Origin: a virus | Virus record (IMG/VR): IMGVR_UViG_3300011445_000053 | Coordinates: 1-32,789 of that record | Length of the DNA stretch: 32,789 bases | Direction: 5' to 3' (one strand) | The notes under the pieces: model-generated | Database searches by the model: none | Seen by the model: only the letters and a program-made list of their open reading frames with translations | Told to the model about the DNA's origin: nothing | Shown here: piece after piece, positions 26,036-32,090 of the stretch | Numbering within the stretch: position 1 is the stretch's first letter | Layout of the letters: each line of letters begins with the position of its first letter | Made by a program: the position numbers and the translations under genes

Positions 26036-27445
26036 TTAAAGCAGAACAACAGAATTGATTTCATTAATGAGCGCTTTCTTATCCTGTTCCATCAACTTCA
26101 TTATGTCAAACACTTTTTCGCTGAAGCCAGCAAGCGCATAGACATTGTGTTGTGGGAACTGCATGGATCCGTATCCTTGCAAGTCAAACGAATATACAAA
26201 AGGATCAGCCTTCAACTTTTGTTTGTATTGATTAAAAGTTGACACTGGTGAGTTACCACCCATCCACCCTTGCATATCAGACAGGATTATAATCCGATCA
26301 TACGCTTTGTTAGCGGTCTGAAAGATTGCATGGAAGTTAGTTCCACCTGAAGAAAACTTCACCGAGTTTGCGATAGTGATCACTGAATCAGAGGAGTTAA
26401 CGTTCACGTATTTAGCGTTCTCTTGAAACAGAATCAAATCGCAATCATTGGACTTCACCAGCACCGCTGCAAAGAGCGACCCTATCTGCGCTGGCTTGCC
26501 ATTCATCGAGCCGGACACATCCAGCACCACCAGGGTCCGTCCATCGAATTTAGGCACATTCGCACAGGCGATATCCACGGCTTGATTTAGGGCCTTTACA
26601 GTAGCTCTCACCTCTTGTGAGGAATCCAGCTTGTTAATTTCCTCAAACGCAGTGGTGAAACGGAAAGGCAGTACCAGTGACTTCCTGATCAGCTTCTCAT
26701 CAACGAGCATCTCCAATGCTTGATCCAGCACCTCTGGAGCCTGTTCAATGATGTTCCGCAGGTTCCGTAACAGGGCGAAGTAGCCGATCTTCCTGGTGAG
26801 GATAAGCTCCTTCCACGCATCCGACTTTGCCTCCGCTGCATCCTCAGCCTTGCCAGCCTCGGATAGCTTGGCCTCCCAGGTATCTTCAGACTTCAGCGTA
26901 CCCGCTATTAGGGAGGCTAGCGCCTTCGCGTTCTTATCGACTGGCGTTGGGTGCAGGATGTTCGCTGCGTCCACCAGTGAGAATCCCTTGCCCTCTCCAC
27001 GGTACTTGGCCAGCTGGTAGCCATCGAACTTGTCGAAAGCTTTAGCCAGACCAGCCTTCATCGCGTGAGTCATCTTGCCCTTGGCATAGGACAGGATCTC
27101 GGTGATATCGTCAGGCCGGTACACCACGGAGTTATAGAAGCCTTTAGCACATGGATTACCCTTGAGGAACCCCCCTAATTTCACTGCCGCTACGTGTGAT
27201 ATGGATCGCATACCAAACTTGGTACGTCCATACACAATGGCCTTGGCCGCAAATTCAGGATTGATCTTAGGCAAGAGAGACTCTAATCTATCGAAGCCAG
27301 TTTCTTCCTTCTGGTAGAACTGATTTTGCGCGAATGAAGTAAGCAGGATGGAAACGAATTCCAATTCTGGTGTCTGGGAGAAGGCCTCGCCTCCGGCCAG
27401 GTTGGTCACCTTGGTAGGTGATTCTTTAACATTGAACTTTGCCAT
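26036..27445 (-). CDS. rsr: Ro60/Rsr ortholog: TROVE plus vWA domain RNA-binding protein, 469 aa
   Basis: Ro60 proteins are ring-shaped RNA chaperones that bind Y RNAs and misfolded RNA; in bacteria a Y RNA can tether them to PNPase. The TROVE part (about 1-300) carries the typical EFAAKAIVYGRTKFGMRSIS (67-86), ANILHPTP (161-168) and WKELILTRKIGYFALLRNLR (211-230) segments. The vWA domain (about 303-469) has an intact metal site: D309-x-S311-x-S313, T369 and D390. It is complete and slightly shorter than cellular orthologs. Upstream on the same strand lie a terminator-like hairpin and three Y-like RNAs. The start ATG follows the U run by about 11 bases, suggesting control by read-through or by Ro60 binding. 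Confidence 0.93.
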   Translation of the reverse strand: MAKFNVKESPTKVTNLAGGEAFSQTPELEFVSILLTSFAQNQFYQKEETGFDRLESLLPKINPEFAAKAIVYGRTKFGMRSISHVAAVKLGGFLKGNPCAKGFYNSVVYRPDDITEILSYAKGKMTHAMKAGLAKAFDKFDGYQLAKYRGEGKGFSLVDAANILHPTPVDKNAKALASLIAGTLKSEDTWEAKLSEAGKAEDAAEAKSDAWKELILTRKIGYFALLRNLRNIIEQAPEVLDQALEMLVDEKLIRKSLVLPFRFTTAFEEINKLDSSQEVRATVKALNQAVDIACANVPKFDGRTLVVLDVSGSMNGKPAQIGSLFAAVLVKSNDCDLILFQENAKYVNVNSSDSVITIANSVKFSSGGTNFHAIFQTANKAYDRIIILSDMQGWMGGNSPVSTFNQYKQKLKADPFVYSFDLQGYGSMQFPQHNVYALAGFSEKVFDIMKLMEQDKKALINEINSVVLL

Positions 27446-27456
27446 ATAATTAAAAT

Positions 27457-27489
27457 AAAAAGGTCACTAATCATCCTCTGATAGTGACC
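27457..27489 (-). terminator. Terminator-like hairpin between the Y RNA array and Ro60
   Basis: On the - strand, GGUCACUA (27489-27482) pairs perfectly with UAGUGACC (27469-27462) across a 12-base loop, followed by UUUUU (27461-27457). The Ro60 start codon lies 11 bases beyond. It would release Y RNA transcripts and limit Ro60 expression to read-through. Its 5' arm, GUCACUAUC at 27488-27480, is also the exact complement of GAUAGUGAC at the start of the second Y-like unit, so alternative pairing that frees the downstream gene is possible. Confidence 0.75.
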
Positions 27490-27500
27490 CTTCAATAACA

Positions 27501-27625
27501 TGACAGGAAATACCTCAATCGGAAATTTAGCGCTCTACCATTGAGCTACTGGGTTTCCCCAGATTGGATTCGAACCAATAACCACTCGATCCACAGTCGA
27601 AGTAACCGATTAATCGTCACTGTCA
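27501..27625 (-). ncRNA. YrlA-class Y RNA with permuted tRNA-like module
   Basis: Closing stem UGACAG (27625-27620) with CUGUCA (27506-27501); conserved UGACGA at 27619-27614; second stem UUAAUCGG (27613-27606) with CCGAUUGA (27522-27515); conserved UACUUCGA at 27604-27597 and AUUUC at 27511-27507. At the tip is a tRNA mimic in permuted order: T arm AUUGG-UUCGAAU-CCAAU (27579-27563), an acceptor-like stem CUGGG-GAAA-CCCAG (27562-27549) with a tetraloop in place of free ends, the linker UA, then D arm GCUC-AAUGGUA-GAGC (27546-27532). The stems at the base stand where a tRNA anticodon arm would be. This is the architecture reported for bacterial YrlA RNAs, which bind Ro60 through that helix. 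Ends are estimated from pairing. Confidence 0.82.
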
Positions 27626-27631
27626 AGATCA

Positions 27632-27699
27632 TTGATAGGAGAAATCGCTGCTGGGAGTGTTTCATTGCTCGAAGTATCCCAATGGCTCGTCACTATCAA
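27632..27699 (-). ncRNA. Minimal Y-like RNA unit 2 (no tRNA module)
   Basis: Closing stem UUGAUAG (27699-27693) with CUAUCAA (27638-27632), 7 perfect pairs. Conserved UGACGA at 27692-27687, inner stem UUGGGA (27682-27677) with UCCCAG (27656-27651), conserved UACUUCGA at 27676-27669 and AUUUC at 27645-27641. The order and spacing match the other two units. Both stems differ from unit 1 by paired changes, evidence that the RNA is structured and selected. It lacks the T and D arms and so resembles only the Ro60-binding helix of the third unit. Confidence 0.68.
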
Positions 27700-27706
27700 A
27701 TATGTA

Positions 27707-27775
27707 TAAGAGGAAATAATGTAGCTGGGTGTTTTCTGTAAGCTTTCGAAGTAACCCAACTGCTCGTCACTCTTA
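27707..27775 (-). ncRNA. Minimal Y-like RNA unit 1, overlapping the RHH stop codon
   Basis: Closing stem UAAGAG (27775-27770) with CUCUUA (27712-27707); conserved UGACGA at 27769-27764; inner stem AGUUGGGU (27761-27754) with ACCCAGCU (27730-27723), 8 pairs; conserved UACUUCGA at 27753-27746; AUUUC at 27717-27713. The UAA that opens the closing stem is also the stop codon of the RHH gene, so the array is probably cut from, or co-transcribed with, that mRNA. It could also act as a 3' UTR element that binds Ro60. Transcription start not identified. Confidence 0.65.
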
Positions 27776-27907
27776 ATGTTTTTTTTCAATAAATTCTTGT
27801 ACGATCCGTCTGATCATACTGGACACTGTCCTCTCCCCGTAATCGGGGGCCATCTTCTTTAATTTTTTGACCCATTCGTGGTCTATCCAGAAGTTGAATC
27901 TCGTCAT
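27773..27907 (-). CDS. Ribbon-helix-helix DNA-binding protein, 44 aa
   Basis: A short protein of the Arc/CopG type: beta strand near residues 2-7 (TRFNFW), helix A about 10-20 (EWVKKLKKMAP), turn DYGERT, helix B about 27-42 (VSSMIRRIVQEFIEKK). RHH dimers insert the paired strands in the DNA major groove and usually repress nearby promoters. It is the first gene of the Y RNA-Ro60 transcription unit and its stop codon forms part of the first RNA unit. It may regulate the divergent promoters in 27908-27969. Start ATG at 27907; no clear Shine-Dalgarno sequence. Confidence 0.75.
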   Translation of the reverse strand: MTRFNFWIDHEWVKKLKKMAPDYGERTVSSMIRRIVQEFIEKKH

Positions 27908-31026: not shown

Positions 31027-31169
31027 TTTTTGGTTCCTCGTTTAATTAAGTCTGCTAATGCGTCTTCTTTGTTTTGTTTTGTCTGCAGTGCATAGAGATG
31101 CCAACGCATCACCACATCCTCAGGCAACCTGGAATTGATCGCCTTCCTTGATTTTTCTTTGTCTTTCAT
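31023..31169 (-). CDS. Small RHH-like protein, 48 aa
   Basis: A lysine-rich N-terminus (MKDKEKSRKA) is followed by INSRLPEDVVMRWHLYALQT and a second helix NKEDALADLIKRG, the strand-helix-helix layout of ribbon-helix-helix proteins. If so it would bind DNA as a dimer and regulate early genes. The ATG overlaps the exonuclease stop (ATGA) and the TGA overlaps the next ATG. It differs in sequence from the RHH protein near the Y RNAs. Confidence 0.55.
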   Translation of the reverse strand: MKDKEKSRKAINSRLPEDVVMRWHLYALQTKQNKEDALADLIKRGTKK

Positions 31170-31834
31170 TTTGGTCCAAGTTTTAATATAGAATCCTTTT
31201 TGTTCTCGTAATGTTTTCGCAGCACCAGGTGGATATCGATCAGGTGATTCAACTCTTCTCTTCCTTCCTTCAGGTAATCCGGGTAATCCAGTACCGGCAG
31301 GAAGAACAACGGGTGGCCTACTACCTTCTTAGCCTGACCAATAAACTCAAAGCTCTTAATACCCGGGGCTGACATATACAATGCAGCTTGCCGGAAATAA
31401 TCGAACTCACGGCTCTTCTTAAGAAAGTCATCCTCGCTCGTACAACTGGTTCCCTTAAGATCCCATACCTTCTGCGCCTTGCGTATATCGAGGTACATAA
31501 GTATAAGCGCACCACGATAAATAAACTGAATCTCGACCTCTGTCTCGGCTCCACGTAAGATCGGCTTAACTCTAGGATCCTCACGGAAGCTCTTCGCCAT
31601 CTGTCCGCACAAGTAATCATCTTTCTCCAGGACTGTTTCTTCTTCATCGGGTTCTAATGCTCGTTTATGATGCTCTGTACCAAAGGTTAGAAAGGACTCG
31701 GACCCGAACCACTGGCTCTCTCCGATCAGCGCTCGTTTCAACGTACTCAAGTATGAGTTGCTGATGTGAGGCTTGTCCGTACGCACTACGTGTGCAAGGT
31801 GTAACACTTTCTCAACTCCGGTTTTAGCCTTCAT
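31166..31834 (-). CDS. PD-(D/E)XK exonuclease (RecB/Cas4-like), 222 aa
   Basis: I start at ATG 31834 (MKAKTGVEKV); a TTG at 31861 would add nine residues. Family features in order: FGTEHHKRAL (H at about 55), D116 in MYLD, D125-x-K127 in WDLKGT, and Q149-x3-Y153 in RQAALYM, the conserved Q/Y motif of phage and Cas4-type nucleases. The metal-binding Asp replaces the more usual Glu in E-x-K. Such enzymes degrade duplex ends in recombination and repair. It overlaps the upstream gene by 11 bases and the downstream gene by ATGA. Confidence 0.8.
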   Translation of the reverse strand: MKAKTGVEKVLHLAHVVRTDKPHISNSYLSTLKRALIGESQWFGSESFLTFGTEHHKRALEPDEEETVLEKDDYLCGQMAKSFREDPRVKPILRGAETEVEIQFIYRGALILMYLDIRKAQKVWDLKGTSCTSEDDFLKKSREFDYFRQAALYMSAPGIKSFEFIGQAKKVVGHPLFFLPVLDYPDYLKEGREELNHLIDIHLVLRKHYENKKDSILKLGPK

Positions 31835-32090
31835 GCCTATTGGGATCAAGTAACTTCTCAAAGTTCTGCCGTTGCTCCAGGTGAGCCATCAGTCCGTCCA
31901 CACCGTCCTTGTGCTGCTCGGCAGCAAACTTGGACATTACCATCAGGCACAGCGCCATGACAGATTGCTTATGGTCCTCGTTTGATTTCTCCAGGTAATC
32001 AAAGCAAGCTCTTGCCAGCTCCAGTATAAGCGGCTTCTCGGGAGATGAACCCCCAAGTTCAACGAGTATATCTATATGATCTTTTCTCAT
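31824..32090 (-). CDS. Helical hypothetical protein, 88 aa
   Basis: Almost entirely helical: KPLILELARACFDYLEKS, then QSVMALCLMVMSKFAAEQ and a charged C-terminus. No metal site or membrane segment is obvious. It begins in an overlap with the upstream gene (ATGA) and overlaps the exonuclease start, so it may act with that enzyme or simply share its mRNA. Not recognised. Confidence 0.55.
   Translation of the reverse strand: MRKDHIDILVELGGSSPEKPLILELARACFDYLEKSNEDHKQSVMALCLMVMSKFAAEQHKDGVDGLMAHLEQRQNFEKLLDPNRHEG

What the first reader, a model, noticed from the sequence alone, without database searches (positions are those of the whole stretch)
26036..27907. Phage-borne Ro60-Y RNA ribonucleoprotein locus
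A complete Ro60 protein (TROVE plus vWA with all metal-site residues) lies directly downstream of three structured RNAs, one with the tRNA-mimic fold of bacterial YrlA RNAs. In cellular bacteria Ro60 and Y RNA act with PNPase in RNA quality control and stress survival. Finding the whole set in a phage late/early junction, between tail and replication genes, suggests the phage redirects host RNA decay, protects its own RNAs, or responds to tRNA damage. These roles are inference.
Basis: partly seen in the sequence, partly recalled or inferred. Interest (0 to 1): 0.93.

Follow-up and report, generated by a model that had tools for sequence, protein, structure and literature searches.

The report
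Phage Ro60 cassette with tRNA-mimicking Y RNAs
A small mobile gene cassette in a bacterial virus encodes a ring-shaped RNA-binding protein (Ro60) and three small partner RNAs, one of which copies a whole transfer RNA, anticodon arm included, in rearranged order; similar sets occur in many phages and bacteria and may help viruses manage or shield tRNAs during infection.

Summary
ORF 26036-27445(-) is a Ro60 protein (TROVE ring plus vWA with intact metal site), preceded on the same strand by three tandem Y-like RNAs (U1 27707-27775, U2 27632-27699, U3 27501-27625). Phage Ro60 genes and Y RNAs are already known, so the headline is not new.

New here, to my knowledge: (1) The units share a covarying core (outer stem, AGTGA-type loop, inner stem, UUACUUC) found at 38/40 viral, 25/38 bacterial-genome and 12/16 named-phage ro60 loci, usually as arrays; Rfam has no model for it. 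(2) U3 is more than a YrlA-type D/T/acceptor mimic. It is a complete circularly permuted tRNA with an anticodon arm (UUCGA-CUGUGGA-UCGAG); a model trained without the window finds it at 71 bits. Across units, anticodon-like loops are canonical (U33 21/22, R37 22/22). Other loci embed unpermuted tRNA bodies. (3) A ribbon-helix-helix gene, the array and ro60 travel together as a cassette; terminase relatives of this phage lack ro60.

Likely role, inferred: a Ro60 RNP whose tRNA-like Y RNAs engage tRNA-handling enzymes (host PNPase, or anticodon nucleases as decoys). No expression or binding data exist.

The parts
27773..27907 (-). 44-aa ribbon-helix-helix ORF, first gene of the cassette, probable regulator; its stop codon overlaps the start of U1
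   Evidence: RHH_1 E=0.0041, Arc-like repressor PHROG E=0.0042, both weak alone; conserved at the same place in six other contigs, 38-49% identity
27707..27775 (-). U1, short Y-like RNA unit (P1, AGTGA-type loop, P2, UUACUUC hairpin)
   Evidence: scanner score 14.1, R1 33.1 bits (in training), fold z-score -3.2
27632..27699 (-). U2, short Y-like RNA unit
   Evidence: scanner score 14.1, R1 29.8 bits (in training), fold z-score -1.5
27501..27625 (-). U3, Y-like RNA unit whose interior is a circularly permuted tRNA
   Evidence: scanner score 14.7, Rfam YrlA 44.3 bits
27532..27601 (-). tRNA module of U3: anticodon arm 27585-27601 (loop CUGUGGA, anticodon-like GUG), variable 27580-27584, T arm 27563-27579, acceptor hairpin with GAAA loop 27549-27562, UA, D arm 27532-27546
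   Evidence: leave-window-out model R3, 71.0 bits, E=3.5e-18; covariation in 15 modules
27452..27493 (-). intrinsic-terminator-like hairpin followed by a T run, between the array and ro60
   Evidence: fold z-score -4.9; similar hairpins before ro60 in L004, L010-L013, L052 and L040
26036..27445 (-). ro60 gene, 469 aa, TROVE plus vWA with intact metal site

Best explanation
This is a mobile three-part cassette: an RHH regulator gene, a tandem Y-RNA array and ro60. It makes a Ro60 ribonucleoprotein in a phage that probably infects a Bacteroidota host. Transcription starts upstream of the RHH gene and runs through U1, U2 and U3 to a terminator, so Y RNAs outnumber the read-through ro60 mRNA (inferred). 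Ro60 binds the common stem core of each unit (inferred from conservation). U1 and U2 are plain Ro60 ligands. U3 presents a full tRNA-shaped body (anticodon, T, acceptor and D arms, permuted, no free CCA end) as an effector module. The most likely job is to engage tRNA-handling enzymes of the infected cell: tethering host PNPase for decay of damaged tRNA and other structured RNA, and/or acting as a non-productive tRNA decoy for anticodon nucleases used in phage defence. Shown by sequence: the parts, the folds by covariation, the cassette. Inferred: expression, binding and function.
For: Protein family and fold. RNA core covaries and recurs at dozens of ro60 loci, including unseen bacterial ones. 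Complete permuted tRNA with anticodon arm in U3 and canonical anticodon loops across 22 units. RHH ORF, array and ro60 are shared by six other contigs that share no other window gene tested; terminase relatives lack ro60. Bacteroidota-type TAnnTTTG box upstream of the RHH gene in all six relatives and a BT4734-like domain in the contig. Phage ro60 genes lie among tRNA genes in csAss, crAss001, phage G, HGTV-1, BRock, Atuin and RHph_TM30, and a TROVE gene lies in 20 of 29 archaeal tRNA clusters (PMC6333295). Rsr and YrlA bind PNPase (PMC9879122); YrlA was proposed as a competitive inhibitor of an anticodon nuclease (PMC7790460).
Against: No expression, processing or binding data. Nearest-neighbour folding prefers another pairing in U3 (-36.3 against -29.8 kcal/mol). 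The 52-kb contig shows no tRNA gene, so a link to phage tRNAs does not apply to this phage directly. In Salmonella YrlA was not itself cut by the anticodon nuclease (PMC7790460). Thirty-four of 56 T-arm units lack a clear anticodon hairpin. The window lacks an exact TAnnTTTG box at the RHH gene.
Confidence: 0.6

Rival explanations
1. A RYPER-like degradation machine only: the Y RNA tethers Ro60 to host PNPase and redirects decay of structured RNA to reprogram the infected cell. The tRNA shape is just a tether surface and the anticodon arm has no role of its own.
For: Rsr and YrlA bind PNPase and alter its substrates (PMC8394870, PMC9879122); the protein has the Ro60 fold.
Against: Does not explain why the anticodon loop keeps U33, R37 and A38 with varied anticodons, nor unpermuted tRNA bodies in other loci.
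Confidence: 0.3
2. Decoy or sensor against anticodon nucleases: Ro60-bound tRNA-like Y RNAs occupy host anticodon nucleases or bind cleaved tRNAs, sparing real tRNAs during infection.
For: Complete tRNA body with canonical, varied anticodon loops; tRNA gene context of many phage ro60 genes; suggestion for YrlA in PMC7790460.
Against: No direct test; many units lack an anticodon arm; no nuclease partner identified.
Confidence: 0.25
3. Chaperone or quality-control RNP for RNA in general: Ro60 binds misfolded RNA and the Y RNAs only gate its ring; tRNA likeness serves RNA stability and modification.
For: Vertebrate Ro60 binds misfolded RNA (structures 2i91, 9nep); two of three window units have no tRNA module.
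Against: Does not account for the anticodon signature or the tRNA context.
Confidence: 0.3
4. The tRNA-like arms are chance matches or a decayed tRNA gene.
For: Score below the Rfam gathering threshold; ARAGORN finds no tRNA.
Against: Leave-window-out hit of 71 bits against a next-best of 9.2; covariation; recurrence at dozens of ro60 loci.
Confidence: 0.02

Closest known systems
YrlA RNA (Rfam RF02553; Salmonella rsr-yrlB-yrlA-rtcB-rtcA operon; PDB 6CU1)
   Same: Next to a Ro60 gene; ends paired in a long stem; interior is a circularly permuted tRNA mimic in the order T arm, acceptor, D arm (PMC8394870, PMC11472068)
   Different: U3 scores below the gathering threshold, has a different stem core, and adds an anticodon arm; two short units precede it; no rtcBA found near
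Ro60 / Rsr proteins (D. radiodurans Rsr 2nvo, vertebrate Ro60, Thermus phage phiLo Ro60 9l5y)
   Same: TROVE ring plus vWA fold and metal site
   Different: Shorter (469 aa), 16-21% identity to solved structures in the fold comparison; RNA binding untested
Uncultured 634-kb phage LR745206 (L004) and related large phages
   Same: 57% identical Ro60, two Y units and a terminator before ro60
   Different: Its second unit carries a long conserved insert of unknown kind instead of a standard tRNA module; no RHH ORF found by my pattern
Listeria phage CKA15 (CKA15_055 Rsr-like protein)
   Same: Abundant noncoding RNAs transcribed upstream of an Rsr-like gene, proposed as Y RNAs (PMC12282133)
   Different: Structure of those RNAs not compared here

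Membership tests
Ro60 / Rsr protein | TROVE domain forming a helical-repeat ring | tested here: met
   Pfam TROVE 3.6e-16; AlphaFold2 model matches 9l5y, 2nvo, 1yvp
Ro60 / Rsr protein | vWA domain with metal-site residues DxSxS, T, D | tested here: met
   D309, S311, S313, T369, D390
Ro60 / Rsr protein | binds Y RNA and misfolded RNA | not testable with these tools
   needs binding assays
bacterial Y RNA | encoded beside ro60, 5' and 3' ends paired in a stem with internal loop | tested here: met
bacterial Y RNA | stem sequence recognised by Ro60 as in known Y RNAs | tested here: inconclusive
   own conserved core (UUACUUC, AGTGA-type loop); the stem of the Rfam YrlA consensus does not visibly match it; known Y RNAs outside Rfam were not compared
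YrlA (RF02553) | score at or above gathering (69 bits) | tested here: not met
   44.3 bits
YrlA (RF02553) | permuted T, acceptor, D arm mimic | tested here: met
YrlA (RF02553) | no anticodon arm in the family structure | tested here: not met
   U3 has a 5-bp, 7-nt-loop anticodon arm
RYPER (Ro60-Y RNA-PNPase) | Y RNA tethers PNPase to Ro60 | not testable with these tools
   needs pull-down; no phage PNPase seen, so a host enzyme would be needed
rsr-yrl-rtcBA RNA repair operon | RtcB ligase encoded with Ro60 | tested here: not met
   no RtcB in 12 related viral records, some of them fragments
tRNA gene | recognised as tRNA, free 3' end for CCA | tested here: not met
   ARAGORN finds none; acceptor arm closed by a GAAA loop
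known anti-phage defence system | match to PADLOC models | tested here: not met

The most novel reading that the evidence does not exclude
Ro60 loci of phages and some bacteria encode a repertoire of Y RNAs that display complete tRNA bodies (permuted and unpermuted) with varied, canonical anticodon loops, forming a Ro60-held decoy or sensor system for anticodon-targeting nucleases that can spread as an RHH, Y-array and ro60 cassette.
Probability: 0.25. Interest if true: 0.86.

Novelty: new variant of a known kind. Interest (0 to 1): 0.64.

Why it matters
Bacterial Y RNAs have known partners but few known functions. A Y RNA that copies the whole tRNA, anticodon loop included, and recurs with different anticodons gives a concrete test of why these RNAs mimic tRNA: decoy, sensor or adaptor. 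The covarying core defines an RNA family that Rfam does not model, and it shows that some annotated phage tRNAs lie inside Y RNAs. Ro60 in gut phages such as crAss001 also bears on the reported idea that commensal Ro60 RNPs can trigger lupus autoimmunity (cited in PMC8394870).

Tried and rejected
(a) Chance arms: rejected. (b) Plain YrlA member: rejected as filing, because the score is below gathering and an anticodon arm is present. (c) tRNA gene: rejected. (d) CRISPR-repeat and BTnc049 sRNA hits (E 0.38 and 1.5) near 27454-27542: sub-threshold; the first lies on the terminator hairpin. (e) Antitermination: U2 TGATAGTGAC is a 10-nt complement of the terminator arm GTCACTATCA; dropped because, by eye, terminators of L010-L013 show no such complementarity to their arrays. 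(f) RNA repair ligase RtcB nearby: none in 12 relatives. (g) Known defence system: no PADLOC match. (h) MAFFT alignments of raw short units (A2-A6) put the stems out of register, so loops were trimmed and, for five longer units, one base removed on each side to make the seed A7; the seed is therefore hand-prepared, and the test that counts is the unseen bacterial loci. (i) The first permuted model R2 had an artificial GAAA linker that favours the window; replaced by R3 with natural linkers and without the window. (j) Short units also show 7-nt-loop hairpins (18 of 68), so loop length alone is not evidence; their anticodon signature is weaker (T33 14/19, A38 9/19).

Full report
CHECK OF THE OBSERVATION. 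The minus-strand ORF 26036-27445 encodes 469 residues with TROVE (3.6e-16) and vWA_Ro60 (1e-7) matches above the curated cut-offs and PHROG 850 'RNA-binding protein' at 4.8e-38. An AlphaFold2 model from 35 sequences (pLDDT 81.8, pTM 0.72) matches solved Ro60 proteins: 9kop, the Ro60 dimer of Thermus phage phiLo (9l5y), D. radiodurans Rsr (2nvo) and vertebrate Ro60. The metal-site residues D309, S311, S313 and D390 are invariant in the family and T369 nearly so. Upstream on the same strand, Rfam YrlA matches 27509-27603 with 44.3 bits, E=1.3e-8, below its gathering score of 69.

THREE UNITS. The 275-nt stretch holds three copies of one plan: an outer stem P1, a loop of AGTGA type, an inner stem P2, the motif UUACUUC, an interior, then P2', a pyrimidine-rich UUUYC loop, and P1'. 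A hand-prepared seed of 15 short units (loops trimmed) gave 95.8% paired cells and a covariation score of 1.00, against 0.26 for shuffles and at most 0.25 for slid partners. Model R1 from this seed hits U1 (27709-27773, 33.1 bits) and U2 (27635-27696, 29.8 bits), both in training, and most related viral ro60 loci. More important, it hits bacterial ro60 loci that were not used to build it, up to 47.6 bits, almost all on the coding strand upstream of ro60. A separate script that looks for P1, P2 and the motif finds units at 38 of 40 distinct viral loci, 25 of 38 GTDB loci and 12 of 16 named phages; 33, 17 and 10 of these have two or more. In the viral and GTDB loci, 169 units lie upstream of the ro60 start and 8 elsewhere. 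Only 2 of 271 motif sites on control strands pass the same score. The short units have no Rfam match at gathering thresholds.

THE tRNA MODULE. Inspection of all loci showed that many units carry tRNA parts. In the window, U3 reads: UUCGA-CUGUGGA-UCGAG (anticodon arm, 5 bp, 7-nt loop), UGGUU (variable), AUUGG-UUCGAAU-CCAAU (T arm), CUGGG-GAAA-CCCAG (acceptor arm closed by a tetraloop), UA, GCUC-AAUGGUA-GAGC (D arm). This is a full tRNA, circularly permuted so that the Y stem enters between D and anticodon arms. Fifteen such modules gave 95.4% paired cells and covariation 0.67 against 0.22 shuffled. To avoid circularity I rebuilt the model without the window and with natural linkers: it finds 27532-27601 at 71.0 bits, E=3.5e-18 (rough), with the next hit in the window at 9.2 bits. 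Among 56 units with a T arm, 22 have a 7-nt-loop hairpin at the anticodon position (shuffles: mean 3.7, maximum 10). Their loops show U33 in 21, R37 in 22 and A38 in 20, over 19 distinct loops. Anticodons differ: GUG in the window; GUU, GCU, CAU, UGU, UAU and others elsewhere. Eight units were classed as carrying an unpermuted tRNA body; in csAss phage, two annotated tRNAs lie inside such units. Known YrlA is a circularly permuted mimic of the D, T and acceptor arms (PMC8394870, PMC11472068), and the Rfam structure line has no anticodon arm.

CAVEATS. Nearest-neighbour energies prefer a different pairing in U3 (-36.3 against -29.8 kcal/mol). Helix choices in the seeds were partly guided by complementarity, and sequences within a clade are related. 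Thirty-four of 56 T-arm units show no clear anticodon hairpin. Short units also form 7-nt-loop hairpins but with a weaker anticodon signature.

THE CASSETTE. Directly upstream of U1 is a 44-aa ribbon-helix-helix ORF (27773-27907; RHH_1 E=0.0041, Arc-like E=0.0042). Six other viral contigs share this ORF (38-49% identity) and ro60 (59-63%), with Y arrays between, and no other of the 20 window genes tested within 3 kb. All six have a Bacteroidota-type TAnnTTTG box just upstream of the RHH start; the window has a near match only. A terminator-like hairpin separates array and ro60 in the window and in several relatives. Of the 13 other records with a related terminase that were searched (several of them short fragments), none holds ro60. 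The window is almost identical (99.95% over 11.4 kb) to part of a 52-kb contig with terminase, DNA polymerase A, a VapE-like helicase and a BT4734-like domain, and no tRNA gene was found. I infer a transferable RHH-Y-ro60 module in a probable Bacteroidota phage.

HOW IT MAY WORK. Shown: protein family, RNA folds by covariation, gene order, recurrence. Inferred: transcription from the RHH gene through the array, termination that favours Y RNA over ro60 mRNA, Ro60 binding to the shared stem core, and effector use of the tRNA body. Two uses fit: tethering host PNPase, as reported for Rsr and YrlA (PMC8394870, PMC9879122), and engaging tRNA-targeting enzymes, a possibility raised for YrlA as a competitive inhibitor of an anticodon nuclease (PMC7790460). 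The retained anticodon loops favour the second. The wider tRNA context of ro60 (phage tRNA clusters; 20 of 29 archaeal tRNA clusters, PMC6333295) fits either. I put identity and architecture at about 0.95, and a tRNA-enzyme role at about 0.5, split between these uses.

NOVELTY. Phage Ro60 and Y RNAs are known: 95 INPHARED records, reviews and phage papers (PMC7824862, PMC7765460, PMC12282133), crAss001 gp96, and a deposited phage Ro60 structure. Not found in the literature available here: the shared array core, the complete permuted tRNA with anticodon arm, the unpermuted variant, and the RHH-led cassette. The key 2014 and 2020 papers on bacterial Y RNAs were not held, so this novelty is provisional. 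Verdict: a real, well-supported new variant of a known kind.

Noticed in passing
L004:5625-5909 and 18 other loci (L016-L039, L048): In large phages the second Y unit carries a conserved insert of roughly 150-200 nt in place of a standard tRNA module, with no Rfam match in the one tested. Unexplained.
   Followed up: partly
L005:3637-3915; L108:2798-2927: Annotated phage tRNAs (csAss tRNA-Tyr and tRNA-Lys, Xanthomonas phage 10KY502B tRNA-Thr) lie inside Y units, so some phage tRNA annotations may be Y RNAs.
   Followed up: partly
L100:315-470 (Bacillus phage G): A candidate permuted unit has a 7-bp acceptor stem followed by ACCA before the linker, which looks like a discriminator base plus CCA; whether it could be processed to a real tRNA end is unknown.
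   Followed up: no
L106:6751-7006 (Brevundimonas phage Papperlapapp): Rfam permuted tmRNA (RF04321) above gathering, 60.2 bits against 47, in a phage genome near its Ro60 gene.
   Followed up: no
tandem tRNA arrays in L073, L080, L085, L103: The permuted-tRNA model also matches across borders of neighbouring tRNA genes at 20-40 bits, so tandem tRNA arrays could be the source of the permuted modules.
   Followed up: no
L087, L090, L091 (Spartobacteria LR76, Neolewinella persica, Chthoniobacter flavus): Bacterial isolates carry the same Y arrays before ro60; whether these regions are prophage was not checked.
   Followed up: partly
L010, L015, L052 upstream of the RHH ORF: GTGTGT and ACACAC or GCACAC flank the promoter-like box, a possible operator for the RHH protein.
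   Followed up: no
window 31166-31861(-): Weak match to a PDDEXK-like family (DUF3799, 3.8e-4, below the cut-off), possibly an early-gene exonuclease.
   Followed up: no
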